Source: Clostridia bacterium (GTDB lineage Bacteria; Bacillota; Clostridia; UMGS1883). From it: DNA of 34,631 nt. Positions 6,001 to 34,536 of this stretch are shown piece by piece. Location of the stretch: assembly GCA_017547445.1 (NCBI GenBank), contig JAFYPR010000068.1, forward strand, positions 1 to 34,631. Direction: 5' to 3'. The notes under the pieces are model-generated. The model ran no database searches. It was not told the origin of the DNA and saw only the letters and a program-made list of their open reading frames with translations. Positions within the stretch are counted from its first letter, which is position 1. The number at the start of each line of letters is the position of its first letter. The translations under genes were made by a program, and so were the position numbers.

Positions 6001-9000
6001 GAAGTTTTCGTACACACCGCCTGCATTTTCATAACGGCTCTCGTAATCAGCTTCAACCTCATGGGCAAATTCCTTCCTGAACTTGTCCTTTACAACCTTT
6101 TCAAACTCTCTGTAAGCCTCAGCGTTTGTGTTTTTAAGCACATGGATAAACTCATGTCCCAGTGTTTTCTTAACAGGGTTAACACCATTAATATTAAGAT
6201 AAATATTGTCCCCGATTGTTGCACCGTCACCAACAGCTGTACCGTCACTCTTTTCAGCCACATCAAAAAACTTAATATGAAATCCTTCATCTGTCAAAGC
6301 CTTTGCAAGCTTCAAATCCTTAAGCTTCTTGTCAGTTTTTTTCCGTTTTGCCTTCCAGTCATGCAACTCATTACTCTCAAACTTAAAACCTTCAGGTCTC
6401 GCTCTGTCAATTGCCCTTAACTCCGCATCAGCTCTTATAATTGCCTCTTCTGCAGTTATAATCCTTGCATTAGGCACGCTTGCAGTAAAGAAAGCATCAG
6501 GATTTTCTGCAATCTTTCCTGTACGAATCTGCTTTACTCTTGCTGCCTCGTTTTCAATCTCTGTTCTTGCCTCATTTTCGGCACGTGCCGCCATTTCCTC
6601 AAGGCTCTTTACAGTGTTGTTGTACACATTCTCTTTCTCGGTTGTCCAACTGCCCTCGGAAAGCTTTTCTGCAACAATATTTACTCCCTTCTTAATTGCA
6701 CTGCCTTTGCTTTCCTCCACTTCAGGAACAGCCTCCTTTGTATCAGCTTCAGCTGACGGAGGGATTGCTTGCTCACTCTCCACATTTTCAACCGCTTCGG
6801 TTACCCCTTTATCCTCGGGAGCATTTTCAATCTTAACCATCGGGGCATTTTCATCCTTATTTTTCCTTCTGTTTTGTGCATAATCAAATCCGCTATATAC
6901 CGAACTCGAAACACCACCGGAAATTGCACCTGCAATTCCGCTAAGTAAAATTTCACCGCCCTGTTCCAGCATTGCTTGTTTCTCAGCCTCTGTCTTTTCC
7001 ATTCCATTTGTTATAAGTTCGTCTACTCTCCTGTTGAACCTTGAATTTTCGCCCATTATCATATCATCATATATAGGCTCAGCAATAGCAGAAACAACTT
7101 CTTCCAACCCTTCTGCCACAGTCTGAGTTTTGATATGCTTTAAAACTGACTTACTTCCTTCTTGAACCGCCCTTTTTGTTCCTTCAAGAAGATTATCAAT
7201 ACCAATCCCCTCTGTTAAAAATTCAACCGCTGCCGAAGTGTAACCAAATGCCATCGCCTCTTCTTTTGATGCGCCTCTCACCGTCGCATCATAAACTCCG
7301 TTTTGATATGCTCCGCCGGCCATCAGCGTTTGATGCAGTTTTACCCCAAGTGCTGGGTTTCCTGTAACTGTTCCAACCACTGTTGACACACCCGCCGTCG
7401 CCATGTTATCTGCAACACTCATTCCTATATCGTACACAGCTTCCCAGCCCGGATTTTTTATCATCTCCTTCGTTGTTGCCGTAACGGTTTGGGCATCTCT
7501 TGTAATATCAAATCTCATACTGTTAACATCAAAAGGTCTGCTCGAATCACTTACAGCATCCTTTACAATATTAACGCCTCCCACAGCCTTGTCAGCTATT
7601 CCTGATGTAACTTTTCCTACATTTGCAATGAAAGGAGCATCTTTCGTAAAGTCTTCCACTTTTTTCGCACGTTCCTCCGCACGTCTCTGCAATGCTTCTT
7701 GTTTTATTCCCTTAAGGTATCTGCCAATAACCTTTGCTCTTTCCACCTCATTATCGTATACATCTGGAGAATATTCCTGTCTCCACATATATGCAATTTG
7801 CTTTTTCTGTTCATCCGTAGCATTTGCAATTACGTTAATTTCATCATCTGTAAAATAAGTGTCAAACTGACCTGTCTGCACATCCTTCAAAACTCTCTCA
7901 GGATAATACAAGTGCATAATAAGACTGTAATCATCATCTGTCACAAAATCAAAACCGTCCTTATCAGGGAGCACGCTTTTTTCTTCCCAGTCGCTCTGTT
8001 TTTTTGCATTTTCTTCAATTTCTTTTGCTTCTGATTCATATGCACTATCAAGGATTCCGTAATTTTCTGAGAGCAGTCTTTTATTCTTTTCAACATCCGT
8101 CTCCTCATTGTAAACGGATGTTGCTAACTTTTCTGTGTTAATTCCTAACAACGGACCTGCCGTTACTGCATCTTTCTTCAAACTTCTCCATATTTTTTTA
8201 TAAAAAGGATCTGAAGCATTAGTGTTCTGAGCCAAGTGCTCCTCGATCACTCCCAAATCTTCAGCAGAATACACTCTCGCGAGAGCCTCTGCCTCCGCCT
8301 GAGCATAAACATCATTGAGGTATTGTGAGTACTTTTTATTCTCTGTGGGTATCGACACCGGCTTATAAGTATAATTTTCAGGCCTTATTGTCCTGAGTTC
8401 CGCTTCTCTTTCCTTTGCAATCTTATTCACATAATATCTCTCTTCAATAGAAAGTTCCTGAAGTTCTTTCACCGCATCCTGTGCATCTTTAATCGCTCCG
8501 TTTTTTCTTGCAGCTTTTCTCACATCAAAAACAAAACTTCTGCCAAGAATTCCAAAAGTATTCATATCAACACCTTCAAATTCTTCCGCATCCTTTTGTG
8601 TTACCTTTGTCAAGTATTCGTCCCACGTTGAACTACCGCTCTCGTCAATTTTTCTTTGTACCCACGAAAGGTCTTCTCCTCCTTCTGTAACTTTTCTTGC
8701 GGCATTAACATTTCCTAATTCTGAATCCAAAAGTCTTTTTGTTTTCCCGCTTATAAAATTACCTAAAACTTCCTCATCCTTTTTAACAGGCACTTTATCA
8801 CTTTTTCCATCCTCTAAATACTGCTTGTACCCTTCAACACTTGTTTTTGCAATCTTCTCTTTCGCATCTTTGCTGTCAGGGGAAAACTTCTCACCATATT
8901 TGTTTTTCGGAACTTCGGGCAAGTCAAGCTTTTTCTCGCCTTCGTCAAGTATGGCTATAGCTCCCGCATATCTATTTTCTGCGGCCATTTTTCTTTCAAA

Positions 9001-9225
9001 GGTCGTTTTAGCTTTTTCTTTTATTTCTGCATCAGATGCAATACCTTTCAACTTTTCCTGCATTTGAGGGCTGAAGCTTTCTATCGGCGCGCTAAATTTC
9101 TCCCCATTCTTGCCACGTGTGGTCAGCGGTGCAGAATTATCCTGCACCGCTTCTTTTTCCTCTTTTTCTTTTGTATATTCGCTTACCGCCTTGTATATAT
9201 CAGCACGTGTTAACTTATCTGTCAT
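1..9225 (-). CDS. Giant phage polyvalent protein, partial (C-terminus beyond left edge)
   Basis: An uninterrupted minus-strand frame starts at ATG 9225 and runs off the left edge, giving 3075 residues with no stop. It belongs by architecture to the phage polyvalent proteins: very long multi-enzyme proteins thought to be packaged and injected to act on the new host. Visible parts, in order, are a charged N-terminal third; hydrophobic Gly/Ala-rich stretches near residues 600-680 and 755-780 that could contact membrane; a zinc metallopeptidase motif HEFIH near 1024; an LPD3/nuclease-like block around WFGDW near 1241; an ADP-ribosyltransferase-like domain (YHGTSEKF near 1437, GFYFAES near 1473, ending near 1540); a second motif HEIQH near 1746, followed by EGFARG; long helical regions; and a C-terminal region (about 2880 onward) resembling an LPD38-type domain. 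The gene lies 12 nt after the 9238 gene and probably shares its promoter. Family assignment is confident; the LPD subdomain names are tentative. Confidence 0.85.
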   Translation of the reverse strand, partial: MTDKLTRADIYKAVSEYTKEKEEKEAVQDNSAPLTTRGKNGEKFSAPIESFSPQMQEKLKGIASDAEIKEKAKTTFERKMAAENRYAGAIAILDEGEKKLDLPEVPKNKYGEKFSPDSKDAKEKIAKTSVEGYKQYLEDGKSDKVPVKKDEEVLGNFISGKTKRLLDSELGNVNAARKVTEGGEDLSWVQRKIDESGSSTWDEYLTKVTQKDAEEFEGVDMNTFGILGRSFVFDVRKAARKNGAIKDAQDAVKELQELSIEERYYVNKIAKEREAELRTIRPENYTYKPVSIPTENKKYSQYLNDVYAQAEAEALARVYSAEDLGVIEEHLAQNTNASDPFYKKIWRSLKKDAVTAGPLLGINTEKLATSVYNEETDVEKNKRLLSENYGILDSAYESEAKEIEENAKKQSDWEEKSVLPDKDGFDFVTDDDYSLIMHLYYPERVLKDVQTGQFDTYFTDDEINVIANATDEQKKQIAYMWRQEYSPDVYDNEVERAKVIGRYLKGIKQEALQRRAEERAKKVEDFTKDAPFIANVGKVTSGIADKAVGGVNIVKDAVSDSSRPFDVNSMRFDITRDAQTVTATTKEMIKNPGWEAVYDIGMSVADNMATAGVSTVVGTVTGNPALGVKLHQTLMAGGAYQNGVYDATVRGASKEEAMAFGYTSAAVEFLTEGIGIDNLLEGTKRAVQEGSKSVLKHIKTQTVAEGLEEVVSAIAEPIYDDMIMGENSRFNRRVDELITNGMEKTEAEKQAMLEQGGEILLSGIAGAISGGVSSSVYSGFDYAQNRRKNKDENAPMVKIENAPEDKGVTEAVENVESEQAIPPSAEADTKEAVPEVEESKGSAIKKGVNIVAEKLSEGSWTTEKENVYNNTVKSLEEMAARAENEARTEIENEAARVKQIRTGKIAENPDAFFTASVPNARIITAEEAIIRADAELRAIDRARPEGFKFESNELHDWKAKRKKTDKKLKDLKLAKALTDEGFHIKFFDVAEKSDGTAVGDGATIGDNIYLNINGVNPVKKTLGHEFIHVLKNTNAEAYREFEKVVKDKFRKEFAHEVEADYESRYENAGGVYENFTDEMKFEEYAADVAGDMLINPEYSQSLINAITESGERVDVKKSKIKAIAEAVRSVVVKLRSALQKMRGTYEYGEATRYINDLQAVHQALVKAYREIGNKKATSGEVEGMKQSANSVITNADVRAIQAIQGSGTGHKGKSVNQFTSQEIKDTEAFAKKYWAELKTKSPFFRAWFGDWREFDTTPVKVVLNKGSQRGVTKNNDTGWDIQVSGKVFSETKAHLQAKNYTAIPLLDYIEGIVQSAILLDSYTIPAEHTKSPNSVMMHSMYAVVDAGNGHELVKLYVEELNDVNSDGTISRAYQLQNITNQQLSAKGSRNNSLAQSTSTADIDTVADLFSVVKQKDADFQPNPASVVRNADGTPKVVYHGTSEKFTRFDITKSRSWEGVPDYDLPGFYFAESKEDGLGYGETGEYYIKITKPYEGDTYALAKEKGSFRQAYEHLTSEGYDGVIVDEFGEGYNEYIVLKDVNIKSATDNIGTFDRTNPDIRFSFAGANADTADMSALEKAESMEQGKATAEEILRETGWYRGIDGKWRFEISDEDAEFSRKGDLEFKKRHPDYARYRELLKVQNKYALGIEGGRELTEDEQAEYDKLRMIWEGTFRIPGKVSADAMTQDKLEAYFNHDKLYEAYPQLRNVKIQFKEDLGGAQGQFDTDNNVITVKDKMNDDFTKSVIVHEIQHWIQKKEGFARGSNIRYWENRLAGEHADKRWELQKRKQSALDKMTEDFRKKVLIQLSHLEDVARVKNDYSAWLDFKQELFDDPENSEAYEEYEDAEWELDELKKKDINLEAKESYYNTAGEIESREASRRMNMTEAERRENIPYRGGQNTVFTDDSMISFSEDNKKTAEEAVDSGAQNDIIDLQVLEKLRSLKGLRGIKYNGGKAIKIPNNDMATLRHKYTTEASYATRTEGLIDAVSCFGQKGKKHYFYVFYKGEDYRVAPIFRLDYEYIHRYIQDIKDINEELGYNGDEFVNEAKRINSGLARVRRIGQGGSVNDDVTADGRGIPGVVEIHTNEGRLHNGASSEKDVERRQLSSGVSDGDNERNSDRRGIKFSMPAPVSQAQYEDRAYKLERDIRIAIEEKIGNKLSAESAHAVQGLSDSIAKGDEAKAQVWREVLRDSILKNDMVYYGEENVSDDVLSNYFKSMRKNKSKVLVEKEDSQDLTARELSSVFGVGGWSRTNGIGVDVVYEELANMGAELNEADSVQDRLIAIKDAREAVRKKNRKPMLNRGNVTELIDVAERSAIGAVSEVERAREEMYASTRDVEGAVPYKREPIGQANVQSAVARLNEMHDAVQEERDDVTRVRLEDEYREEQLRFFNWIMPHFTRADERGVTGDYCFHTNAELDAERSEVAESEKAAFEADRYMEENKMSRDMVMAAHMLDEGETTVEEIGKRYRNVEDRDKIFALAEMYKKVTANPDKLKRRHRALFEDVIKHLFYYSAQMRNISHINVQKDTPERIIDKICRVNDIRDVTMGNHGVTGDKSDGYFIVTADNMKEVLVRGKDANEARLKKAAKRYKEIVKGLDIKAGSEDSALIQDYGEGRITEQDIPFDKRERIVKAAETLTDEVYKPLLEEANRRRFIEGKGEFVAPPLRLTESERRSFRYMLDNMDYVQKHIADIKAHIKTAGVSEAAKRLHLNEGIVQAVADYGDNAAKYVKWVKCDWIAEDRLPVLQQAWNLVQRGKKYNLRSGKVEMDYFPHFEKDDAIVELGNLFIDQLPTAINGLTESFRPNSKYNPYFNTRTGNKTDSDAIFGANAYINATLQYIYHTSDITKARLAENHLRTKYGKDGGDPYVLSNVALWLHEWGNQMAGKQHAVDRMTQNLIGRRASKFLRLGMGNIGRNQISWNFRTPLSNFSVWTRGLAVVAQEIASGGGSNGLSYAFGNWKEHIQKSDFLFSRFYDDVDLSTKDWRKPVTGNGTGQNARNAASNVINAVSNAGKKVSDAGFKLMGWSDKFTITAMHKMLTGVYIAQGMSEEDAIRKADYEMKSQAASRDFGDSPL
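2193..2224. repeat. Palindromic repeat inside the polyvalent gene
   Basis: A GC-rich inverted repeat (arms GGGAC/GTCCC on the minus strand) lies in frame in the polyvalent gene, near residues 2335-2345, and encodes the local peptide TRDVEGAVPYK. It resembles dispersed intergenic palindromes of Firmicutes genomes, so it may be a small inserted element. This is a resemblance only; no second copy of this exact type was seen in the window. Confidence 0.4.
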
Positions 9226-10802: not shown

Positions 10803-12167
10803 TCAGTTCTTTCTCGCTCTCATCACCATCGCCAAAGCTTCAGCTCTTGTAATCGGCTCATCGGGTCTGAAGGTCCCATCCCCTCTGCCGTTCACAATGC
10901 CTTCCTCTGCGGCCTCATTGATAACATCTTCCGCCCAGTGCCCCTTAATATCTGTAAACTTATCCATGTTCTTTTTCTCCTTCTTCTCAATGCCAAATCC
11001 TTCGCACAAGCCGTCAACAATTGCCTCAACTACTTCATGTGTCTTTATCGCAAAGAGCTCCATATCGTCGAAATCGTCAATAAAGCACGTTTCAAGCAGC
11101 GCATAGCTCACGCCCTGTCCCTTGCAGATGTTCATGTTCTGCAGGTCGCTTCTTTTCTTAACCCCTCTGTTCTTAAAACCAAGTGCACATATTTTTTTCA
11201 AAACAGCCTCTTCTGCGCCCGTATCACTCTTTGAAGCATGTACCAATATCTCTGTGCCCGTTGTCTTTCCATCACCTGTCACATCATCCACACAAGCATT
11301 AAAATGCACTTCAAGCACAAGGTCATACCCGGTGAAATCAAAAGCATTGTTTTTGAGATATTTGTACGGGTTTCTTGTTATATCAAAAACTTCAACCTCA
11401 ATATCCGTCTCAATTTCAAGCTGTGTTCTGAGTAGTGACACAACATCTCTCGCCAAATCTGCTTCCTTATATCCGCACCCAGTCGCACCGGGGTCACCAT
11501 CACCGTGTCCGGCAATTAAAAGTATCTTCATAGTCTTCTTTACCTCCTCTTTTTCCTCACAAGGCTTAATAAGATAACCTCTCTTCAAGTCTGTGTACTT
11601 GTAGCTGTCAAGTCCCATTGCTCCGCCTTTATTACCCCAGGAATTTATAACTTTAAAAATCTGTTGATTGTCATCCCATCCGATTATAGGAACAGCATGG
11701 CTGTCCGGCTTTTCTTTCACGATTGCAACAATCGGAATTTGATTTTCAATCAGCGCAGTTTTAATTGCCTCAACCCTTGCATCACGGCTGCCATTGTTTA
11801 TTTTTTCAAACCCTTCCGCAAGATGAATAGCCTTCTCCTTCAGCTCAGGGTGCGCCATGACATACTCGTAAGCCTCAGGGTTTTGCATCATTTCAGGCAA
11901 GTCCTTTGTTAACACCGCTCCCACGTCAATCATTGCAGGGATAGCAGAATCGACAACAAGGCTTTTCATAGTTTTCTGCCCTTCTACGTCACTGCGCCAC
12001 ATTACAGCTCCCCACGTGGGGGAAAACTGTTCCCGTTCCCCCGTCTTCTTGAAGTGGATAATCTGCAGAACACTTGTTATAGCCATCGCCACACATATAT
12101 TAAGCTTCCCCTGATCTCTGCAGTCCGGCCATAACTCCCGAGGTAGCATAAACTTTTCAGGCAACAT
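10803..12167 (-). CDS. Endolysin: papain-like protease + amidase_3 + SLH domain
   Basis: 454 residues with three modules. Residues about 10-200 resemble a C1 (papain-like) cysteine peptidase: Q19 and C25 in DQGKLNIC, H157 in DSHAVPI and N175 in INSWGN. Residues about 213-392 are an N-acetylmuramoyl-L-alanine amidase of the amidase_3 type: zinc ligands H221 (AGHGDGDPG), E236 and H288 (EVHFNA), and catalytic E360 (LLETCF). Residues 404-453 are one S-layer homology domain (FTDIKGHWAED ... ITRAEALAMVMRA), which normally binds secondary cell-wall polymer. Start ATG 12167 has the AAGGAG site. It directly follows the holin, as expected for a lysis cassette. No signal peptide is visible, so release should depend on the holin. 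A linker starts at an internal Met (KKTMKILLIAGHG), so an internally started amidase-SLH form is possible. Confidence 0.92.
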   Translation of the reverse strand: MLPEKFMLPRELWPDCRDQGKLNICVAMAITSVLQIIHFKKTGEREQFSPTWGAVMWRSDVEGQKTMKSLVVDSAIPAMIDVGAVLTKDLPEMMQNPEAYEYVMAHPELKEKAIHLAEGFEKINNGSRDARVEAIKTALIENQIPIVAIVKEKPDSHAVPIIGWDDNQQIFKVINSWGNKGGAMGLDSYKYTDLKRGYLIKPCEEKEEVKKTMKILLIAGHGDGDPGATGCGYKEADLARDVVSLLRTQLEIETDIEVEVFDITRNPYKYLKNNAFDFTGYDLVLEVHFNACVDDVTGDGKTTGTEILVHASKSDTGAEEAVLKKICALGFKNRGVKKRSDLQNMNICKGQGVSYALLETCFIDDFDDMELFAIKTHEVVEAIVDGLCEGFGIEKKEKKNMDKFTDIKGHWAEDVINEAAEEGIVNGRGDGTFRPDEPITRAEALAMVMRARKN

Positions 12168-13061: not shown

Positions 13062-15143
13062 TTAACTATTAATATTACTCAAACCTCTTACTAAATACAA
13101 CCTATTGCCAGCACCCTTATCAAACAAGAACAATCTTCCGTCAGGAGTAGCCTTAAGACGATAAATAAGACAATTATCCGATGGTGTATAAACGCCTTCA
13201 TACTCAGGCTGTTCGGGTGTATGTGTAATATCAAACAATGCTATACCTTTATGGTCGTGATTAACAACTAACGTATTACCCATCCTCACAATATGAGATG
13301 GCATACTATCGGAGCCTGTTTTTATCTCATTCATATCCTCAACAGGAATAAGCGACAATTTGCTTTCTGTAGGTACAACAGATATATCCTCTTCATCCAT
13401 TTTCAACGTCAAAATACCCTGAATAGGATAATTTGCAATGTAAGATTTCGTTACGGCAAGTGTTGCATAAATATAAGGATATTTAACAGTAACCGCAAAA
13501 GTATGCGCTTTTGCCGCCCATGTTTCATTGCCTTTAAACACGTATTTCCACACCTGTGTGGGTGATGAAGGATTGGTGATGTCGAAAAGCCATATTCCGT
13601 CTGCGAAACCTGCCGCTGCATAATATACCTTGCCACCTAACTCAAACACTTCACCCTTTTGTATTTCAATTGATGCTTCTGTGGAGAAGTTTTCAATTGT
13701 TTCTTCTGTCAACAACACGGGCACAGTGGGGTTAGATACATCGTATATATCCCATCTCACCATTTGTTGGTTCACAATAAGATTATTATCGTGAATAATC
13801 AGGTCGCTTATCTTTGAGCCGAAAGGAATATACAAGCTCGTTCCGTCAACAGTTGTATCGCTCTTATCAATCTCTTCTCCTGTTGTGGGATTAATAGGGT
13901 TAAGAGTGTTCTTGCTGAAAATAAACAGAGAGCCTGCTGATTTTTCGTTTGTCTGTACCTCTGTCGCTCTCCCTGCTTTGGAAAGTCTATTTCCAACATA
14001 AAGGTAATCGCCATTAATCGCCATACCTGTAGTTTCATAAGATTTATTACCAGAAGGATTATCGGCTGTAATAGTATCTGATGCTGCCACAATATATTTT
14101 GCGAACTGTATGCTTTCTACCACAACAGGAGCTACCTCACAGCTAACATCAATCTTGTAAAGATATCCGTGCTTGGAAAGATATACATATCTCCCTTCTG
14201 CTGTAATCATTGATGCTGCACCATAGTCTAAGGGAGTTTTCCAGTTCATGAATTGAGGCAATCTCACAACCTTTTTGTTCACAAAATCCTTTGTGGTGTG
14301 CTGTTCCATTTCATTTCTAACTTCTTCGTCAAGACTATCTTTCGGAATGGACAACTGTTTTTCATATACCGCATTTTTGATAAGTGTCACTGTAGGTCCG
14401 GTAGAATACCCACTTGTCATTGTAAAGTAAATATAACTTGCATTTTTAGGGATGGGAATGTTTTCTAAATTTATCCATGCACTGCTTGTACCAAGTCCAT
14501 CTATGTGCGAAGAAATAAATTTATCTTCCGCATCAAAGAAATTCACACCATAGGTAGAACTTGAATACAACCTGACTGTTACTGCATCATAACCTGCGAC
14601 ATCATATTTGTAACTATACACAGGATTAGCCCAGCTAACTGTTGAGATTGTTCCATCAGCTTTTACAATGGTTTTTTGAGAAATTAAGCTGCATTCCCCT
14701 GCAACACTTTGCTCTTCCGAAGCAAGAACCTCTTTTACAGGAATAGCTTCTTTTATCTCTTCGAATTTTGTGTCTGCATAGCTTTCTGCTTCACTTACCG
14801 CTTCACTCTTTGCCTCTGCCGCCTTTGTGTCGGCGTATGTCTTTGCATTCTGCTCAGATTTATTCCACTTTTCAACATCGCCCTCTGCAATCTTGTCAAG
14901 CTCTTCCTTGTTTGAGTGATCATGCTTCTTCTTGTTGATATCAGTTTCCTTATCCACCCAACAATCATTAGTCACTCCGCCTTCAAGACGATATTTCGTT
15001 TTTGTTGCTTCAACGTATACCTCCATCCCTTCAAATCTTACGCCTATAGGTATATTATCACGCTCTGCAGTAGTTTTTCTTGTCATTCTGTTATCAACAG
15101 GCACAGGTGCGCCCACATCAAACCCCGCAACAATCTTAGGCAT
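13062..15143 (-). CDS. Tail fibre/receptor-binding protein with probable LVIVD-type beta-propeller
   Basis: 693 residues from ATG 15143, with a strong AAAGGAGG site. The N-terminal about 90 residues resemble the attachment part of phage tail appendages (HDHSNKEELDKIA near 75-87). Residues about 90-135 are a coiled coil rich in Ala/Glu (TYADTKAAEAKSEA). A jelly-roll-like segment may cover about 145-265. The C-terminal 400 residues carry repeated blades with a D(I/V)(S/T)NP-type signature: YDVSNPTVPVLL, FDITNPSSPTQVW and FDITHTPEQPEYEG, as in LVIVD-repeat propellers. The likely role is host surface binding. It carries no template-derived variable repeat, so it is a fixed counterpart of the DGR targets. 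Its start overlaps the preceding gene by 8 nt. Confidence 0.8.
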   Translation of the reverse strand: MPKIVAGFDVGAPVPVDNRMTRKTTAERDNIPIGVRFEGMEVYVEATKTKYRLEGGVTNDCWVDKETDINKKKHDHSNKEELDKIAEGDVEKWNKSEQNAKTYADTKAAEAKSEAVSEAESYADTKFEEIKEAIPVKEVLASEEQSVAGECSLISQKTIVKADGTISTVSWANPVYSYKYDVAGYDAVTVRLYSSSTYGVNFFDAEDKFISSHIDGLGTSSAWINLENIPIPKNASYIYFTMTSGYSTGPTVTLIKNAVYEKQLSIPKDSLDEEVRNEMEQHTTKDFVNKKVVRLPQFMNWKTPLDYGAASMITAEGRYVYLSKHGYLYKIDVSCEVAPVVVESIQFAKYIVAASDTITADNPSGNKSYETTGMAINGDYLYVGNRLSKAGRATEVQTNEKSAGSLFIFSKNTLNPINPTTGEEIDKSDTTVDGTSLYIPFGSKISDLIIHDNNLIVNQQMVRWDIYDVSNPTVPVLLTEETIENFSTEASIEIQKGEVFELGGKVYYAAAGFADGIWLFDITNPSSPTQVWKYVFKGNETWAAKAHTFAVTVKYPYIYATLAVTKSYIANYPIQGILTLKMDEEDISVVPTESKLSLIPVEDMNEIKTGSDSMPSHIVRMGNTLVVNHDHKGIALFDITHTPEQPEYEGVYTPSDNCLIYRLKATPDGRLFLFDKGAGNRLYLVRGLSNINS

Positions 15144-15747: not shown

Positions 15748-15889
15748 TCACCTTCTCCAGCTTCTCTTCAACTTCTCTTATTTTATCCTCAAGCTTTTCT
15801 ACACTTGTTTTCATATCCCTTTCAAACTTTTCAAGTTTTTCAAGCTTGTCCATGATTTTTTTAAACTCCTTCTTTTCTTTATCATTCAT
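15731..15889 (-). CDS. Small coiled-coil protein (52 aa)
   Basis: A short gene, ATG 15889 to TAA 15731, encoding MNDKEKKEFKKIMDKLEK and onwards. The protein is nearly all Lys/Glu/Leu with clear heptads (KLEKLEKFERD, VEKLEDKIREVEEKLEKV), so a coiled coil is likely over its whole length. Its start overlaps the end of the 767-residue structural gene (ATGAATGA) and its end overlaps the next gene by 17 nt; a GGAG site lies upstream. Such a tight overlap supports real translation. It may be a trimerisation or chaperone-like tail component. Function is unknown. Confidence 0.7.
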   Translation of the reverse strand: MNDKEKKEFKKIMDKLEKLEKFERDMKTSVEKLEDKIREVEEKLEKVSESGS

Positions 15890-18185
15890 AGCTTACTTCT
15901 CCACCGTTTTTAATTTCCATATCCATGCTCACAAGTTTAAAGTATCCTTCGCCTCTGAATCTGAGCTTCAAAAACCAATCCACAACATTTGTAAGGCTTA
16001 CCTCTGCTCTCTGCAATATTGTTTTCGTGCCGGCATTTGTCCTCAGAAGGATTTGTTCTGCATTCCCGTCACTCTTTATTGCTTCAACAACAAAAGTGCT
16101 GTTTGCCCCGATCTCATACGTAATTTTCAGCTTCGACAATCTCTTTAAGCTTAAAGTGTTTTCAGTCATAGCATCAGTTTCAAACTCCCAATCACCATAA
16201 ATCTTTCCTTCAAGCTTTATAAGTTCTCCAGAACTCGTAATTGCATGCATCTCACCGCCGAACATTATCATTTTGCCAATATCGGCAAAATGATATGACT
16301 GCCTCTCTTCCCACATATCTAAAAGGAAATCATACTTATATACTTTATCACCTGTTTTTACAAGTATACTTCTGTCATTACCAAGCATCTTTACGTTTTC
16401 ATACACATCAATGCCAAGCTCGTCCCCTATCACAGCGGGAAAACCTCCGCCATATGTCCTCAGAGCATTTTTTCCCGCGAAGCATAATCTGCCGTAAGCC
16501 TCGCAAACCGCTTCCGGGAACGCTGTTCCAACAGCATACACATCCTGGATTGTAAAAGGATTACTTCCTCCGTATACCTCCTGCATAAATCCGCTTTTAA
16601 GAACACTTATTCTGCCCATATACTCACGCATTGCCACAATATCACCATCAGCATTGGCATTCGCCGTAGTAGTTGTCATCCATGCATTCTCGCTCGACAT
16701 CTTATCAGTAGTATCCAACTCCCACTCGTTGTAGGTGTTATGGTTACTTGCGATAATCTTGCTTCCTACGCTTCCGAAAACTCTTCCCTTATAAAAAGTT
16801 ACATGGTCAAATTCAGGCGCTACCGTATTTTCGTAATTGAAAATACCCGGTTTACGGTTGTAGCTTGCATCTTCATTTTCCGTAATAACACCATACCCAT
16901 ACCAATAGTGCGCCAAGCCGCAAATAGTATCTCTCGTCTGTTCTATTCCGTATTCAGTCAAAAAATCTTCAATACTAAAGTTTTTTAAAAATTGCAACAC
17001 ATCATCATATTCAGCATAGGTAACCACTTCATATGTATCATCCTTTGGCTTCCTCAATGTTGCTTTATCTGTGTATATCGTGCCAATGGCTTTTCCTACA
17101 TATTTTTCGTATGTGTCTTCCCCTGCTCCGGATTCATCCAAATAACAGCCTACGTATATTGTTTCATCCTTTTTTCTTAAATACAGATTCCTTCTCAATT
17201 CAACCCAACACGAATACTTAGTGTCTGAACCATCATGTATAGGAACACTTTTTATGTATCTCCACACCTCTCGTGCTTTTCCGTCTTCGTCACAAATGCA
17301 GTAAATACGCGCAGTATCTGCTTCTTCGTTCCACAACAAAGGCATAAAATTATCAATAAAATCTATACTTCCGCATGGGAATACCGGAAGATGCTTAGAC
17401 CCACCAGTTGTTGCATTCCATGTCGAAAATACACAAACATTTTTGTTTGTCGGCAAACTTACATCATTGCCGCTTGTTTTCTCTACAAAAACACACCTTG
17501 TTTTTTCGGTCGGCAATATTTTTTTTGAATTGGGAAAATCCACTTCATCTTCGCACATCATCACGTAACAGAATTTTCCGTTTATTACTCTGCCGTAAAC
17601 ATATCCTTCTTCCGCCGCAATAAAAATCTCTTCGCCTCTCGTCACGCAGTCATAAACCTTACCTAAGCTTTTTTCAATATTCGCTATTGTTCCGTCATCC
17701 CCAACAAGCTTCTTAACCATTGTAAACTCTGCCACTACCTCAGGTGTCACCACGCTCTCCACGTTCGGAAAATCTCTGAATGTCACATTAACCGCTTCGG
17801 AAAGAGCTCCCGAATCAAAGGTAGCACGTTTGTTCATTCCTCTCCATCCGCCAAGGTGTACAATGTTACTTCCCTGTACGGGTATTTTTGCCTTGCTCAT
17901 TTCTACGGTATCACTTTCAGGCTCACTTACATTGACTGCAGGTATATTCTTCAACATACCTCCCGCTTCTCTTTCCGGAGGCTCCACCTTTGTCATTAAA
18001 ATACTTTTTTTCATACCTTCGATATGTCTTTCAGGCTCACTTACATTGACTGCAGGTATATTCTTCAACATACCTCCCGCTTCTCTTTCCGGAGGCTCCA
18101 CCTTTGTCATTAAAATACTTTTTTTCATACCGGTCGTTTCTTTTGCAGGATTATTTATATTTCCTTCAAAAACACTCTTTTTCAA
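15882..18185 (-). CDS. Large structural protein with N-terminal tandem repeat (tail hub or DNA-stabilisation-like)
   Basis: 767 residues. It starts at TTG 18185 after an AGGTGAAAG site. The first about 95 residues are built of repeated units: MKKSILMTKVEPPEREAGG and MLKNIPAVNVSEPE occur twice, from a perfect 104-nt DNA repeat. The body begins at LGGWRGMNKRATFDSG (about residue 112) and continues as a beta-rich protein of about 650 residues with many short strands (GEEIFIAAEEGYVYGRV, VTFYKGRVFGSVGSK), compatible with a propeller-like or tail-hub fold. Its position after the connector genes and before the tail appendage genes fits a tail tube/hub or packaged-DNA stabilisation protein of a short-tailed phage. 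The exact assignment is uncertain. Confidence 0.75.
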   Translation of the reverse strand: MKKSVFEGNINNPAKETTGMKKSILMTKVEPPEREAGGMLKNIPAVNVSEPERHIEGMKKSILMTKVEPPEREAGGMLKNIPAVNVSEPESDTVEMSKAKIPVQGSNIVHLGGWRGMNKRATFDSGALSEAVNVTFRDFPNVESVVTPEVVAEFTMVKKLVGDDGTIANIEKSLGKVYDCVTRGEEIFIAAEEGYVYGRVINGKFCYVMMCEDEVDFPNSKKILPTEKTRCVFVEKTSGNDVSLPTNKNVCVFSTWNATTGGSKHLPVFPCGSIDFIDNFMPLLWNEEADTARIYCICDEDGKAREVWRYIKSVPIHDGSDTKYSCWVELRRNLYLRKKDETIYVGCYLDESGAGEDTYEKYVGKAIGTIYTDKATLRKPKDDTYEVVTYAEYDDVLQFLKNFSIEDFLTEYGIEQTRDTICGLAHYWYGYGVITENEDASYNRKPGIFNYENTVAPEFDHVTFYKGRVFGSVGSKIIASNHNTYNEWELDTTDKMSSENAWMTTTTANANADGDIVAMREYMGRISVLKSGFMQEVYGGSNPFTIQDVYAVGTAFPEAVCEAYGRLCFAGKNALRTYGGGFPAVIGDELGIDVYENVKMLGNDRSILVKTGDKVYKYDFLLDMWEERQSYHFADIGKMIMFGGEMHAITSSGELIKLEGKIYGDWEFETDAMTENTLSLKRLSKLKITYEIGANSTFVVEAIKSDGNAEQILLRTNAGTKTILQRAEVSLTNVVDWFLKLRFRGEGYFKLVSMDMEIKNGGEVSYE
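17914..18131 (-). repeat. Perfect in-gene tandem duplication, 104-nt copies with 114-nt period
   Basis: Bases 17914-18017 and 18028-18131 are identical as read. They are separated by 10 nt that differ in origin. The 114-nt period is 38 codons, so the frame is kept and the N-terminal peptide is doubled. Complete identity at third codon positions points to recent duplication or ongoing slippage or recombination. Confidence 0.9.
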
Positions 18186-26796: not shown

Positions 26797-27540
26797 TCAC
26801 GCAACAACTCTGTTCTTATATGTAGGGATTTTAACAAATTTGAAATTTAAAAAGCCGTTTACACCCTCGTAAACGTTTACTAATTTATATCCCTTTGGAG
26901 TCTTCGGAGGCTTGTCCACACTGTAATTTCTCTTTATTTCCCTTGCCTCTTCCTTCTCAGGCCGACTCACATTTTTAGTTTGTATCCATCTCTTGCCTTT
27001 TACTTCAATTGCATGGTCAAAGAGGTAATTGGCAAGAGATGTGTAATCTCGGCCGTGGTCAACACCGTTATAAAGGTTGTGAGCACGAAGCCTCTCTATT
27101 CTCATTGTCGTACCATTCTTCCACTTATCTATTATGTAATTCTCCCACACACCGTCTATAATAAGATGATGATGAAGTCTGCCGCTTTTTCTGCCATAAC
27201 CCGTTACCGCCATTATCTTTGCATTCTTAAACTTATATCTTATCTTTCGTATAAACTTTTTTAATTCCGCTTCAGCTTCCTTATAGTCCTTCGGCAAATG
27301 CTTGTCGTCATATGTGAGTGTTACATATAAACCTCCGTACTGGAATGTAGCATTTACATTCCCGATAAATCTCTTTCGGCTCTGCCTCTCGTTGGCAATA
27401 CGTTTTTCCTCATCAGTACGAGGACGAGAGAGCTTTCTCTGAATGTCGCTTGCATCCTTCACGCCTTCATTCACGGCGTAAACTTCAACATCCAACACAC
27501 AACCCGAGTATATTCTTCTTTTATATTTTTTGATGGCCAT
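26797..27540 (-). CDS. rep: HUH-type rolling-circle replication protein
   Basis: 247 residues from ATG 27540, with an AGGTGAGAG site. It matches phage and plasmid rolling-circle initiators: motif YVTLTYDDKHLP (residues 72-83), a metal-binding HUH motif LHHHLIIDG (H123-H125), and a candidate nucleophile in DYTSLANYLFDH (Y166 or Y172). Such enzymes nick one strand at the origin, stay linked to the 5' end through Tyr, and start strand displacement. A helical region (about 40-60) and a basic C-terminal part follow the pattern. It lies directly after a hairpin-rich block that could be its origin. For a tailed phage this replication type is unusual. Confidence 0.85.
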   Translation of the reverse strand: MAIKKYKRRIYSGCVLDVEVYAVNEGVKDASDIQRKLSRPRTDEEKRIANERQSRKRFIGNVNATFQYGGLYVTLTYDDKHLPKDYKEAEAELKKFIRKIRYKFKNAKIMAVTGYGRKSGRLHHHLIIDGVWENYIIDKWKNGTTMRIERLRAHNLYNGVDHGRDYTSLANYLFDHAIEVKGKRWIQTKNVSRPEKEEAREIKRNYSVDKPPKTPKGYKLVNVYEGVNGFLNFKFVKIPTYKNRVVA

Positions 27541-27544
27541 ACTC

Positions 27545-27765
27545 TCACCTCAAATGCGATATATTTGCCTTTGGCAAATTCGATATATCTCCACTCTGCT
27601 CCGATGCGATATATGCTCATTACATTCACATGCGATATGATATGAATCCACACACGCCCGCAGGCATATCGCGTGAAAGGCACATATCGCTCCCCGAAGG
27701 GGAATATCACAAATCCTCAAGGATTTATATCGCTGGCTAAGCACAATCAAAGATTGTGCTTAGCC
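27545..27765. repeat. Hairpin array with GATAT spacers; candidate replication origin or mobile palindromic element
   Basis: A series of small hairpins: ATTTGCC-ttt-GGCAAAT, CCCC-gaa-GGGG, AAATCCT-ca-AGGATTT, and a 14-bp perfect stem GGCTAAGCACAATC (loop aaa) at 27735-27765. They are separated by short (T)ATCG/GATAT sequences. The segment fills the about 206 nt between rep and the preceding gene, whose stop codon lies in the last stem. It resembles dispersed hairpin elements of Clostridia; an origin for the adjacent HUH Rep is the alternative. Confidence 0.7.
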
Positions 27766-31547: not shown

Positions 31548-32594
31548 TCAACTCTGCACTCTACATTCTGCATTCAACACTTGATTTATCTTCTCATCCA
31601 TCCGCTTGCCAAGCCTATAACAATTCCCATGTGATACATGGTTTTTCCACGCACCATAGGAAGCATCAAACTTCTCCTGTGAAAGCTTCCCCTCCCGGAC
31701 AAGCCTCGCCATCAGCACGAACTTCTTCTGAGCATTCCGCTTGTTCTGGTTCTTCAGCTTCCGTATTACCTTCCCGTTTTCTGTCACATACGTATGAAAC
31801 CCAAGATAATTCACACCATTCTTAAAGGGCATTATCTGTGTCTTACCATTAAAGGTCAAATCCAGCGTTCCGAGGAACTCTGTCAGCACTTCAAGGCAGT
31901 ATTTCAAATATTCCTTGTCGGGGTGTATCAAGTAAAAATCATCCATATATCTGCCGTAATACTCAATTCCCAGCTCGCCTTTTATAAAATGGTCCATACC
32001 GTCTAAATACAACAGCGCAAAGCCCTGGTTAATCTGATTACCGAGCGGTATCCCAAACCCTTCCGTGCTGTCAATAAACAAATCACATAGCCAACATATG
32101 TCTTGGTCATGTGAGAAGTGGTAATTTACAACATCCTTCAGCTTTTCGTGAGGGATGCTGTAAAAGAACTTTGTAACATCACACTTTAATATGTAACCGT
32201 CATGTCGGTACTTCTTCCAGAACTCTTTCATCTGCACACTCAAACGGTCAAGACCGAAGAGTGTACCTTTTCCTTTCTGCCCGGCACAGTTATCGCATAT
32301 AAATACCTCCTGCAGCTTACAGAGTATCACATTATCACATAAGCTATGCTGTACGACCTTGTCCTTGAAAGGCGTTGTTTTTATAATACGTTCCTTCGGC
32401 TCATACACTTTAAACTCCGTGTACTCTGATACCCTGTAAGTCTTATTTCTCAGCTGTTCTATCAGAAGATGCACGCCGTCTAAAGCTGATGCAGAAAACC
32501 GTGCAGCACTTTTCTTATTGCCTTTTCCACACTTGGCTCTCCTATAAGCCTTGTACATATTCTCAAAGTCTATAACCTTTTCAAAGTCGGTCAT
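31548..32594 (-). CDS. Diversity-generating retroelement reverse transcriptase
   Basis: 348 residues from ATG 32594. This start is chosen because AGAGGAG lies 9 nt upstream; the frame remains open upstream through the template repeat but has no comparable ribosome site there. RT motifs: KRERIIKTTPFKDKVVQHSL-like finger region (residues 66-85, YEPKERIIKTTPFKDKV), GYILKCDVTKFFYSI (133-147), the catalytic Asp D139, GIPLGNQINQ (181-190), a GxxxxQ-type motif in the place of the group II intron QGxxxSP, and the active site YMDD (216-219). There is no maturase or endonuclease domain. It copies the template repeat with adenine errors, together with the Avd-like protein. The last residues NAECRVQS derive from a dispersed repeat. 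Confidence 0.93.
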   Translation of the reverse strand: MTDFEKVIDFENMYKAYRRAKCGKGNKKSAARFSASALDGVHLLIEQLRNKTYRVSEYTEFKVYEPKERIIKTTPFKDKVVQHSLCDNVILCKLQEVFICDNCAGQKGKGTLFGLDRLSVQMKEFWKKYRHDGYILKCDVTKFFYSIPHEKLKDVVNYHFSHDQDICWLCDLFIDSTEGFGIPLGNQINQGFALLYLDGMDHFIKGELGIEYYGRYMDDFYLIHPDKEYLKYCLEVLTEFLGTLDLTFNGKTQIMPFKNGVNYLGFHTYVTENGKVIRKLKNQNKRNAQKKFVLMARLVREGKLSQEKFDASYGAWKNHVSHGNCYRLGKRMDEKINQVLNAECRVQS

Positions 32595-32803
32595 ACAGCA
32601 TAACTCCTCTTTGTTTATCCGCAGCATAACTGCAGAAAGGTTGCACGTTCTTTTGGTGTGGTGCATTGATTTCAGCATTTGCTTACTCTGTCGAGCTGTC
32701 CACCAGTACGGGCGAACGCCGTTATTGTTGTTGTAGTTATTGTTGTTGATATTGCCACGGGGCGAAACACAAAAAGAAAAATACAACGTACAACCTGTTT
32801 AAT
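32595..32803 (-). ncRNA. DGR template RNA region (TR plus spacer)
   Basis: The 209-nt gap between the Avd-like gene and the RT start contains the 63-nt template repeat and about 113 nt of downstream spacer. In known DGRs the template RNA, including its spacer to the RT gene, is required for cDNA synthesis. RNA ends cannot be seen in the sequence. Confidence 0.6.
32708..32770 (-). repeat. DGR template repeat (TR)
   Basis: A 63-nt repeat with an 11-codon core: AAT ATC AAC AAC AAT AAC TAC AAC AAC AAT AAC. It is flanked by constant GTGTTTCGCCCCGTGGC and GGCGTTCGCCCGT. Nine of 11 codons are AAY, the classic template codon that can yield many residues and no stop when adenines change. It corresponds to VR1 at 33228-33290 and VR2 at 33969-34031. 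Confidence 0.95.
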
Positions 32804-33178
32804 TTAATAACTGCTCTGTTCCTTCTTGCGCCAGGCAAGTGCCATATACTTCACATCACACACAAGCTTCGACCAATACTTAGCTGAATTTTCACTCAAC
32901 AGCTTTATGTTCATCGACAACTCTATGTAACTGAGTAAATTGTCACACCGCATGATAGCTTTCGTTATCAGTTCGCACCTCTCCCGGCATCGTGCCTTGT
33001 TGTCTGTCCGGTTCGCCTCAAGAAGTATTTCGTAAATATCCATACTCCTCAACTGCATTCGGTCAACAAGTGAGTGCCTGAATTTCTTCGGATACCGTTT
33101 TTCATTGGTTGTCAGTGTAAACGTGTGTGCCATAAGCTCTTTTGCCTTTACAATGACTTTCATGTTATCGTCAGCCAT
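32804..33178 (-). CDS. avd: DGR accessory variability determinant (Avd-like, four-helix bundle)
   Basis: 124 residues from ATG 33178, with GAGGGG upstream and 5 nt after the VR1 gene stop. It is predicted as four helices (residues about 5-20, 37-58, 63-92, 96-117) with a basic face and the ending ALAWRKKEQ. Size, helical content, and position between a variable gene and the template/RT match the Avd proteins of known DGRs, which bind RT and template RNA as a pentamer. Motif identity was not tested by search. Confidence 0.8.
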   Translation of the reverse strand: MADDNMKVIVKAKELMAHTFTLTTNEKRYPKKFRHSLVDRMQLRSMDIYEILLEANRTDNKARCRERCELITKAIMRCDNLLSYIELSMNIKLLSENSAKYWSKLVCDVKYMALAWRKKEQSSY

Positions 33179-33183
33179 TTACT

Positions 33184-33711
33184 TTACCCCTCATCAGATA
33201 CAAAGATAAAAGATGAAAAGCGTAAAAACGGGCGAACGCCGTTATTGAGGTGGCAGTTACCGTTGAAGATACCGCCACGGGGCGAAACACAACGTACCCA
33301 AATCGGGTCATAATGAGGTTGTGCCGTATCGGGTGTTGCAAGCCACCACCAACTGTTTACCTTGTGCTCATCAAACACATCCACGTTGTCACGGTAAAAA
33401 TCGAGTGTCGGTAAGCTTACCTTCGATACCAGGTTCTGATACGGTCTTAAGCCGTCAAGCGTCCTCAAGTCTGTTTCAAATTCAAGGATATTTTTTTCTC
33501 CCACAGCCTCTGCAATCTTCGGAAGAAACTCCTCCTGAAGTTTCTTCAATACCAAGCTCTCCGCAAGGTTGTTATTTTTCTTACCAAACTGTTCATAACT
33601 GAAAATGAGGTCCTTCGCCACCACATCCACACTGCCATCCTCACGAGGGAAGCATATAAGCTCATACCCCGCAACATTGATTGTCTGTCCACGTTCAACT
33701 GTCTTAAACAT
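33184..33711 (-). CDS. DGR target protein 1 (variable, C-type-lectin-like)
   Basis: 175 residues from ATG 33711, with an AGGAGG site. The C-terminal part has the DUF6273/C-type-lectin-like features NSWWWLATP (119-127), RCVSPRGG (140-147) and GVRPF. Residues 147-157 (G I F N G N C H L N N) are the variable codons, copied from the template. The N-terminal half (about 1-110) is a distinct domain (AGYELICFPREDGSVDVVAKDL) shared in outline with target 2. The protein is likely displayed on the virion and binds a receptor, or sits on another surface. No signal peptide or membrane segment was seen. The VR lies close to the C-terminus and near the next gene's start. Confidence 0.9.
   Translation of the reverse strand: MFKTVERGQTINVAGYELICFPREDGSVDVVAKDLIFSYEQFGKKNNNLAESLVLKKLQEEFLPKIAEAVGEKNILEFETDLRTLDGLRPYQNLVSKVSLPTLDFYRDNVDVFDEHKVNSWWWLATPDTAQPHYDPIWVRCVSPRGGIFNGNCHLNNGVRPFLRFSSFIFVSDEG
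33228..33290 (-). repeat. DGR variable repeat 1 (VR1)
   Basis: 63 nt aligned to the TR without gaps. Ten differences were counted and all ten are at template adenines (codons 1, 3, 5, 7, 8 and 9 of the core). The constant 13-nt 3' end (GGCGTTCGCCCGT) then diverges from TR, as expected for the initiation of mutagenic homing (IMH) versus IMH* difference. Confidence 0.95.
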
Positions 33712-33933
33712 AAAAATTACCTCCTATATTTTAATTATTATTTTTTATCCCACTCCGTGGGGATAGAGGGAAACAGTTTGTTTCCCTCTATAAGGAACTT
33801 CGTTTGCAACATCAATTCAACTTTGCCACTATCACGATGGCTCGTTTCATTGTGTTGCAGCACAGCCCTCCGTGCTTCCTTCATCCGCCACTGGCGGCGG
33901 TCGCTACTCGGTTCCTCTCTATTTATAAAATTT
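33712..33933. other. Intergenic region between the two DGR targets; hairpins at 33763-33791 and 33885-33897
   Basis: About 220 nt with a perfect 13-bp stem (ATAGAGGGAAACA / TGTTTCCCTCTAT, 3-nt loop) at 33763-33791, a bulged stem of about 8 bp (TATCCCAC/GTGGGGATA) just beside it, and CCGCCA-c-TGGCGG at 33885-33897. A TTG-started frame of 68 codons crosses the region without a ribosome site and is not accepted. The AT-rich stretch before ATG 33711 may hold a promoter. Confidence 0.6.
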
Positions 33934-34536
33934 TTAAGATACAAAGATATCAGATTTTAAGATGCAAAACGGGCGAACGCCGCTATTGTCGTAGTAGCAA
34001 TTGTTGTCGATACCGCCACGGGGCGAAACACACTTAATCCAGGATGCATCTTCGTGTGTAGGTGTGCTGTAAGGAGTTGCAAGCCACCACCAAGTCTTAA
34101 GCTTGAATTTATCAAGAATATGTACATAACGGCGGTAAAAGGTTGTTGTAAGAAGGTTTGCCTTTCTCTTTACCTTGCCGTAGTCCTTCAAGCCATCGTC
34201 ACTTGTAAGGTCAACCGTATGCTCAACAATATTTTCTTTGCCTATAATGGCAGCGAGTTTTTCTGCAAACTCGTTACACAACTTGTCCACATTGGAGCCG
34301 TTGTAATTGTTGTTCTTGCCGAATTTTGCTCCGCCGGGCAAAGCTTCCTTCAGGATAACCGCCGTTGTTTCTTCAGAACGGTCGAGTACAATAAACTCAA
34401 ACGGGCCAAGCTTACAAAGCTCACCTACCTTAACATCCTTAAGCTTCTTATCCGTTATTCCGAAGCTCTTTCTGATTTCCTTTACCTGTTCCTCTGTAAG
34501 GTCAACTCTCTGACCATTTAACATAATGTAGTTCAT
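33934..34536 (-). CDS. DGR target protein 2 (variable, C-type-lectin-like)
   Basis: 200 residues from ATG 34536 (AGGAAAAG upstream). The C-terminal domain has KTWWWLATP (147-155), KCVSPRGG (168-174) and GVRPF. Residues 175-185 (G I D N N C Y Y D N S) are the template-derived positions. The N-terminal part has a helix (LTEEQVKEIRKSFGI), then ELCKLGPFEFIVLDRSEETTAVILK and GAKFGKNNNYNGSNVDKLCNEFAEKL, a pattern typical of DUF6273 proteins. It is a clear paralogue of target 1 in its second half. No membrane segment is visible. It is the first full gene of the window on the coding strand. Confidence 0.9.
   Translation of the reverse strand: MNYIMLNGQRVDLTEEQVKEIRKSFGITDKKLKDVKVGELCKLGPFEFIVLDRSEETTAVILKEALPGGAKFGKNNNYNGSNVDKLCNEFAEKLAAIIGKENIVEHTVDLTSDDGLKDYGKVKRKANLLTTTFYRRYVHILDKFKLKTWWWLATPYSTPTHEDASWIKCVSPRGGIDNNCYYDNSGVRPFCILKSDIFVS
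33969..34031 (-). repeat. DGR variable repeat 2 (VR2)
   Basis: 63 nt aligned to the TR without gaps. Eight differences were counted and all eight are at template adenines (codons 1, 3, 6, 8, 9 and 11). Ends match TR and VR1 and then diverge. Confidence 0.95.

What the first reader, a model, noticed from the sequence alone, without database searches (positions are those of the whole stretch)
31548..34536. Complete DGR with one template and two variable target genes in a phage genome
Template and both variable repeats align over 63 nt without gaps. All 18 differences (10 in VR1, 8 in VR2) are at template adenines, which is the defining DGR signature. The set is complete: target 2, target 1, Avd-like protein, TR and RT in one tight unit. 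Two targets served by one template double the surface that can vary. The targets are C-type-lectin-like proteins, and the phage also has a fixed tail fibre. DGRs are known; a phage cassette with two paralogous targets is less usual and this one may be undescribed.
Basis: partly seen in the sequence, partly recalled or inferred. Interest (0 to 1): 0.93.

Follow-up and report, generated by a model that had tools for sequence, protein, structure and literature searches.

The report
Phage cassette mutating paired lectin genes
A bacterial virus carries a complete self-mutating cassette (a diversity-generating retroelement) in which one template matches two neighbouring genes except at its adenines; dozens of related cassettes keep the same gene pair, often near DNA-replication genes, so the two predicted lectin-like proteins likely act early inside the infected cell rather than as tail fibres.

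Summary
TR 32708-32771, VR1 33228-33291 and VR2 33969-34032 (minus strand) align without gaps; all 10 + 8 differences lie at template adenines. RT, Avd and two DUF6273-like targets (predicted C-type lectins) are present. Two-target DGRs, also in gut phages, are in print, so "may be undescribed" holds at most for this cassette type.

New here: (1) 50 distinct cassettes, window included, have two targets, 48 as tandem pairs beside Avd, and the two targets form largely separate old lineages; (2) named neighbour families are replication, recombination and DNA-modification genes, none head or tail in the rows shown; (3) relatives L110 and L111 differ at 13 of 6,053 positions, all at template adenines of one VR; (4) a covarying helix closes the template in 64 of 64 cassettes; (5) RT motif 4 reads NQ, not SQ, in 35 of 36 close RTs; (6) A-to-C is almost absent before C or T.

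Likely reading: an active DGR diversifying two non-redundant early lectins; their ligand is unknown.

The parts
31548..32594 (-). DGR reverse transcriptase, 348 aa from ATG 32594; motif 4 GNQINQ, catalytic box YMDD
   Evidence: Pfam RVT_1 and phrog_1423; nearest solved structure 8ub7; alignment A3
32708..32771 (-). Template repeat (TR), 64 nt, 20 adenines
   Evidence: self-alignment
32785..32796 (-). 5' strand of the template-closing helix (AGGTTGTACGTT)
   Evidence: covarying helix
32638..32649 (-). 3' strand of the template-closing helix (AACGTGCAACCT), in the TR-to-RT spacer
   Evidence: covarying helix
32595..32803 (-). Whole template RNA region modelled as R1 (5' flank, TR, spacer)
   Evidence: one of the 34 sequences R1 was built from; hit 32595-32809, 216 bits, by construction
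32804..33178 (-). Avd accessory protein, 124 aa
   Evidence: phrog_3206 5.1e-23; Pfam bAvd sub-threshold
33184..33711 (-). Downstream target, 175 aa, DUF6273-like, predicted C-type lectin by homology to the 200-aa target
33228..33291 (-). Variable repeat VR1; 10 differences, all at TR adenines
33934..34536 (-). Upstream target, 200 aa, DUF6273, with an N-terminal extension of about 28 residues that the 175-aa target lacks
   Evidence: model pLDDT 96.0
33969..34032 (-). Variable repeat VR2; 8 differences, all at TR adenines

Best explanation
This is a complete diversity-generating retroelement whose reverse transcriptase and Avd are predicted to copy the one template RNA with errors at adenines and to write the copies into the 3' ends of two tandem paralogous genes, whose predicted C-type-lectin products likely serve as a pair of variable binding proteins early in infection rather than as tail fibres. 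Shown: TR and VRs with A-only differences; RT and Avd genes; the tandem pair kept as largely separate lineages across relatives; A-specific differences between near-identical relatives; a covarying helix that closes the template; replication-type neighbours. Inferred: the steps of mutagenic retrohoming (from the BPP-1 literature); that the helix sets the priming spacer next to the 5' end of the template and limits cDNA length; that both lectins act inside the cell on a variable partner (host defence, host factor or rival phage). My odds by part: DGR 0.97; two non-redundant targets 0.9; early non-virion role 0.55.
For: TR/VR and genes. Relatives: 105 loci fetched by homology to the 200-aa target (78 viral, 27 genomic); with the window 83 of 106 have Avd and RT; 50 distinct cassettes have two targets (34 viral, 15 genomic, the window), 48 as adjacent pairs. 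Over 113 TR/VR pairs of 64 distinct TRs, 1217 of 2258 A's and 29 of 5384 other bases differ (the match scoring favours A). Control: with each base in turn free to differ, summed match length was 7642 nt for A and 3741-3836 nt for C, G, T; A gave the longest match in 101 of 113 pairs (ties go to A). Activity: L110/L111, 13 of 13 differences in 6,053 bp at TR adenines of one VR; window target relatives P0002 and P0001 have 9 of 17 and 6 of 15 residue differences in the 23-residue variable stretch (p 1e-5 and 0.003), P0003-P0005 7 of 33, 7 of 44 and 8 of 44. Separate lineages: 31 of 32 downstream targets of the window's 67-row clade fall in one set of 32 rows (SH-aLRT 100); the odd row there and the missing one are the two genes of L080, whose order is changed. 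Setting: 178 neighbours. Helix.
Against: The window's own VRs have no population data. Gene place is not proof of a non-virion role: tentaclins, with a homologous domain, are argued to be virion proteins (PMC10743442). Only 25 of 39, 37, 148 and 106 families were shown, and many PHROGs rows carry no description. Of 21 near-identical pairs, 3 differ in a VR with next to nothing elsewhere, 1 (L092/L093) differs in the VR among 128 differences, and 17 show no VR difference; G002/G003 are identical over 14,310 bp. In L116/L118 one of three differences is at a template G, in L111/L109 one of 14 at a template C. No downstream DNA hairpin of the BPP-1 kind stood out.
Confidence: 0.72

Rival explanations
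1. The two lectins are virion-borne receptor-binding or adhesion proteins, as Mtd and the tentaclins are thought to be; the genes merely sit away from the tail block.
For: Viral targets of three DGR clades were mostly annotated as tail proteins (PMC8144416 section 9); homologous DUF6273 domains occur in the tentaclins of nd4 and nd12, argued to be virion proteins.
Against: No Ig, tail or anchor family matched these 175- and 200-aa targets; named neighbour families are replication genes; the window phage has a separate tail-type gene (13062-15143), and the TR/VR 18-mer occurs nowhere else in the MAG.
Confidence: 0.35
2. The second target is a spare duplicate with no separate role, kept by recent duplication in each phage.
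For: The two are 39.8% identical over 171 residues.
Against: Upstream and downstream targets form largely separate lineages: 8 and 7 label changes against 36.6 in shuffles.
Confidence: 0.05
3. The window's DGR is decayed: RT motif 4 has lost the SQ dipeptide and the VRs are relics.
For: GNQINQ instead of GxxxSQ; no activity data for the window itself.
Against: NQ is found in 35 of 36 close RTs, and VRs of NQ cassettes differ from TR almost only at A; the AQ relatives L110/L111 differ only at template A's; NQ and AQ exceptions with A-exchanges are in print (PMC3521204).
Confidence: 0.05
4. The RT belongs to a group II intron or retron and the repeats are coincidental.
For: None found.
Against: Best solved match 8ub7 at 1.3e-30 against 6.5e-9 for a maturase; Avd, TR and two VRs.
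Confidence: 0.01

Closest known systems
Two-target DGRs of gut phages nd4 and nd12 (PMC10743442)
   Same: One TR, two VRs, DUF6273 C-type-lectin domains; RT 45% and 50% identical. One target of each, homologous to the 200-aa target, lies away from the tail genes: in nd4 next to a DNA polymerase III subunit, in nd12 among small hypothetical genes
   Different: The other nd target is a tentaclin with Ig domains and VR near the 5' end; the two targets lie kilobases apart; here both are small, tandem and paralogous
Faecalibacterium phages Lelie, CP11, Lagaffe_CP (PMC11792537)
   Same: Two variable regions per DGR; large and small DUF6273 targets in Lelie and CP11; two paralogous targets in Lagaffe_CP
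   Different: In Lelie the RT follows baseplate genes, and the gene matching the 200-aa target lies 14 kb away
BPP-1 DGR (Mtd, Avd, TR, bRT; layout from passages of PMC12875486 and recall)
   Same: RT homologous, Avd, TR upstream of RT, VR at the target's 3' end, C-type lectin
   Different: Single tail-fibre target (recalled); motif SQ; reported A-to-C preference is the reverse (PMC12875486)
Quimbyvirus DGR (PMC8008677)
   Same: Two C-type-lectin targets, one argued non-structural beside defence-related genes
   Different: Frameshifted RT; targets far apart; Bacteroides phage
DGRs of Burkholderia phage Magia, Shewanella phage vB_Sb_QDWS, Pseudomonas phage LPPA56
   Same: Same order: two small targets, Avd, TR, RT; gap-free 90-100-nt TR/VR stretches with 8-15 differences, all at A (the finder reports only such stretches); RecT and an integrase, a DNA methylase and an integrase, or a tyrosine recombinase nearby
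   Different: Targets did not come up in the searches with mine; RTs matched only below the rows listed, if at all; helix test not significant. The Magia announcement names targets 47 and 57; I find 46 and 47

Membership tests
Diversity-generating retroelement (DGR) | TR and VR differ at template adenines only | tested here: met
   18 of 18 differences; chance 1.2e-6 and 2.8e-5
Diversity-generating retroelement (DGR) | RT of the DGR kind | tested here: met
   8ub7 1.3e-30, phrog_1423; no RT tree with retrons and introns was built
Diversity-generating retroelement (DGR) | (I/V/L)GxxxSQ in RT motif 4 | tested here: not met
   LGNQINQ here. [quoted passage not shown]
Diversity-generating retroelement (DGR) | Avd or other accessory gene | tested here: met
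   phrog_3206 5.1e-23; Pfam bAvd sub-threshold
Diversity-generating retroelement (DGR) | VR at the 3' end of a C-type-lectin target | tested here: met
Diversity-generating retroelement (DGR) | DNA stem-loop downstream of VR (BPP-1; aids homing, not strictly required) | tested here: inconclusive
   DNA folds z -1.50 (VR1) and +1.15 (VR2)
Diversity-generating retroelement (DGR) | Active A-specific diversification | tested here: inconclusive
   Not testable in the window alone; seen in relatives L110/L111
[quoted passage not shown]
   No Ig family matched; lengths 175 and 200 aa, below the 313-649 aa reported
Tail receptor-binding target (Mtd-like) | Part of the virion tail | not testable with these tools
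   Named neighbour families are replication genes; no proteomics

The most novel reading that the evidence does not exclude
A phage-borne, antibody-like system that works inside the cell: two co-inherited small lectins, expressed with replication genes and hypermutated from one clamped template RNA, bind varying host-defence, host or rival-phage molecules; the same design, seen in Proteobacteria phages too, would be a class of non-structural DGRs.
Probability: 0.4. Interest if true: 0.88.

Novelty: new variant of a known kind. Interest (0 to 1): 0.6.

Why it matters
Phage DGRs are mostly read as tail-fibre mutators. A widespread family with two small, separately maintained lectins near replication genes would mean that phages also hypermutate non-structural proteins, with an isolated phage of like gene order (Shewanella phage vB_Sb_QDWS) in which this can be tested. 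The template-closing helix is a simple, testable element for where cDNA synthesis ends. The A-to-C deficit speaks to a question left open in PMC10743442: mutation or selection.

Tried and rejected
Exact pattern with N at every template A in IMG/VR: no match. First structure model from 17 sequences was poor (pLDDT 68.8); replaced by the 121-row alignment (96.0). Profile search of the target against solved structures: none up to E 1; Avd: only one hit, E 0.8. Foldseek alone gave one match under 1e-3. Fusion of TR and RT in one frame: rejected (stop in a relative). Motif-4 residue as cause of the substitution bias: G/T/C shares do not differ clearly between NQ, SQ and AQ (p 0.085). G007, same genus, RT 92%: its contig ends at the RT start, and no target was found in it, G005 or G006. 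Helix as a general DGR trait: 7 of 17 control TRs reached p 0.05 or less (crAssphage C0521BD4, BMP-1, nd12, MT837771, Versailles, Shimadzu, Lelie), 10 did not (p can go no lower than 0.01); Magia, QDWS and LPPA56 did not. Left open; Handa et al. 2025 on the BPP-1 complex is not held. Promoter and terminator scans: 9 against 6.6 and 5 against 2.7 in shuffles.
Full report
OBSERVATION. On the minus strand the window reads: 200-aa target (33934-34536, VR2), 175-aa target (33184-33711, VR1), Avd (32804-33178), TR (32708-32771), RT (31548-32594). TR and each VR align without gaps over 64 nt with 8 and 10 differences, all at TR adenines; the chance of that is 2.8e-5 and 1.2e-6. The invariant 18-mer occurs exactly three times in the MAG, which is 59.8% complete. 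The RT start is the conserved ATG at 32594, not the TTG at 32786 (a relative has a stop between).

A WIDESPREAD PAIRED CASSETTE. The 200-aa target has 3777 relatives at E up to 1e-3 among 3858 candidates, in a database clustered at 90%. I fetched 78 viral and 27 genomic loci with relatives of it (retrieved by homology, so frequencies are no estimate for all DGRs). With the window, 83 of 106 carry Avd and RT; in the other 23 one or both were not found, some being cut by contig ends. After removing identical TR regions, 50 distinct cassettes have two targets (34 viral, 15 genomic, the window); in 48 the two are adjacent and next to Avd, in L080 and L083 the other lies about 5.5-5.8 kb upstream. 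Named sources are mostly Oscillospiraceae and other Clostridia MAGs, many from ruminant guts. In a tree of 112 target rows without the VR (bodies under 95 residues dropped), 'up' and 'down' need 5 changes between them; each label alone needs 8 and 7 against a shuffled mean of 36.6; 31 of the 32 downstream targets of the window's 67-row clade form one set of 32 rows with SH-aLRT 100. The tree used the quick method; 43 of 108 inner branches are poorly supported. The pair thus looks old and kept, not a recent spare.

ACTIVITY. Over 113 TR/VR pairs of 64 distinct TRs, 1217 of 2258 adenines and 29 of 5384 other bases differ; for the 106 pairs that pass a filter (at least 45 nt, at least 4 A-differences and 4 per other difference) it is 1174 of 2165 and 26 of 5184, and 44 of the 64 TRs have two or more such VRs. 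The scoring favours A, so I let each base in turn vary freely: summed match length 7642 nt for A against 3836, 3741 and 3819 for C, G, T; A was longest in 101 of 113 pairs, ties going to A. L110 and L111, from different IMG metagenomes, differ at 13 of 6,053 positions, all 13 at TR adenines in the VR of the second target. L111 and L109 show the same 13 plus one in the VR at a template C. L116 and L118 (single target) differ at 3 of 16,510, all in the VR, one at a template G. Of 21 near-identical pairs compared, these are the 3 clear cases; L092/L093 differ in a VR among 128 differences; 17 show no VR difference. G002/G003 are identical over 14,310 bp. For the window's own target, P0002 differs at 9 residues within positions 169-191 and 8 elsewhere, P0001 at 6 and 9, P0003-P0005 at 7 and 26, 7 and 37, 8 and 36. 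Over the window's target and its best 120 relatives, mean column entropy is 1.59 bits at 169-190 and 1.02 elsewhere; 173, 175, 177-180 and 182-185 are among the 20 most variable columns.

PLACE. One search listed 184 upstream and 177 downstream ORFs, up to four a side, of the 50 cassettes (counts); from these I chose by hand 86 and 92, mostly same-strand ones of about 65 residues or more (three of the 92 are window genes). Pfam shows replisome organisers, SSB, DnaB, RecT, ParB, DNA methylases, HUH Rep, Sak; the PHROGs that carry a description are of the same kinds. None of the 100 rows shown (25 each of 148, 106, 39 and 37 families) names a head, tail or packaging family; the rest were not shown. 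For comparison I looked at 15 named phage regions, picked from the hit list by hand. In 10 the DGR RT lies near tail, baseplate or virion genes (BalMu-1, phiARM81mr, a crAssphage, VHML, jmh51_hp, vir525, Versailles, Lelie, Shimadzu, Arawn); BMP-1 is unannotated there, LBR48's RT stands at the record's start before holin and lysozyme, and Magia, QDWS and LPPA56 show no annotated tail gene beside it. In the window the order along the minus strand is cassette, ParB, Rep, terminase, portal, capsid, tail-type gene. Homologues of the 200-aa target in nd4, nd12 and Lelie also lie away from the tail block. Magia, QDWS and LPPA56 have the same order with two small targets each, TR/VR stretches with 8-15 differences at A, and RecT, a DNA methylase with a 'host nuclease inhibitor', or a tyrosine recombinase nearby. 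This favours an early, non-virion role but does not show it.

TEMPLATE RNA. In 34 template regions a helix joins the flank just 5' of TR to the spacer; with three small spacer helices, 39 cells have changes on both sides against 7.9 in shuffles, and sliding the partner drops pairing from 96.8% to 28-49% (shuffles do not keep relatedness). Over all 64 distinct cassettes the best complement between the two flanks has the form GG...CC; in the 61 of 12 bp, eleven of twelve positions pair in 61 of 61, with up to five pair types (position 4: 36 of 61). Taken alone, 50 of 64 single sequences beat shuffles at p 0.05 (27 of 35, 17 of 17, 6 of 12 by clade). Model R1 finds the whole region in 19 of 19 family loci outside its training set, and parts without the 5' helix strand in nd12, MT837771, Lelie, Shimadzu, nd4 and L010; the other control loci gave nothing or hits at E above 0.02 (E-values rough). 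Rfam at gathering threshold has no match there. I infer that the helix brings the priming spacer next to the 5' end of the template and could stop cDNA synthesis; in BPP-1 a motif at the avd 3' end ends synthesis (PMC12875486, passage).

ENZYME MARKS. Motif 4 ends in NQ in 36, SQ in 20, AQ in 8 and GQ in 2 of 66 distinct RTs; 35 of 36 RTs at least 69% identical to the window's have NQ. Over 105 distinct TR/VR pairs (at least 45 nt, at least 3 A-differences, at most 1 other), A became C in 80 of 861 A's before A, 3 of 890 before C, 3 of 338 before T, 0 of 33 before G. In 24 VRs of 21 other DGR loci (23 tried, some near-identical) it was 31 of 267 before A, 9 of 250 before C and 14 of 104 before T (p 0.29, 1.2e-4 and 2.8e-7); several controls, nd12 and Lelie among them, also lack it before C. 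Serine from 840 AAY codons came 100 times by AGY and never by TCY, where about 21 were expected at the before-A rate, which selection on the protein alone does not explain. For BPP-1 bRT the reverse is reported, guanosine misincorporation 26.8% at NAC and 2.4% at NAA (PMC12875486). PMC10743442 section 2.6 had noted the rarity and left mutation or selection open.

KNOWN OR NEW. Papers seen: PMC10743442 (abstract, 2.1-2.4, 2.6, discussion), PMC11792537 (passages; 25, 58), PMC3521204 (passages; 56, 78), PMC8144416 (passages and one section; 57, 60, 64), PMC8008677 (passages; 63), PMC12875486 (passages; 80, 113, 121), PMC7883833 and PMC5883640 (passages; 134, 135). Two-target phage DGRs and non-structural targets have precedents. 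I found no account of a conserved tandem pair near replication genes, nor of the helix, in searches; this library lacks most subscription papers, and Wu et al. 2018 and Handa et al. 2018 and 2025 are not held. Verdict: a real DGR and a new variant of a known kind.

Noticed in passing
27661-27735 (-): Gut-1 RNA (RF01706), 52.1 bits against a cut-off of 50, just upstream of the Rep gene in this phage.
   Followed up: no
26797-27540 (-): HUH-type Rep (REP_ORF2-G2P; phrog_3584) in a phage with terminase, portal and capsid genes; phrog_3584 also tops the list of genes downstream of related cassettes, 8 of 92.
   Followed up: partly
10803-12167 (-): Lysin-like protein with Amidase_3, an S-layer homology domain and a sub-threshold papain-like match.
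   Followed up: no
1-9225 (-): Open frame of at least 3075 codons that runs off the contig end.
   Followed up: no
15882-18185 (-): N-terminal near-exact repeats (KSILMTKVEPPEREAGGMLKNIPAVNVSEPE) in a 767-aa protein without Pfam match.
   Followed up: no
L113 end; G007:C99 end: Contigs that stop at the VR (L113 matches L110 only up to base 2321) or at the RT start, as strain-variable repeats could cause.
   Followed up: partly
L170, L173, L174: Isolated Proteobacteria phages with two small targets, Avd, TR, RT; TRs of Magia and QDWS are nearly identical.
   Followed up: partly
TR/VR pairs of the family: A-to-C almost absent before C or T, the reverse of bRT's reported preference.
   Followed up: partly
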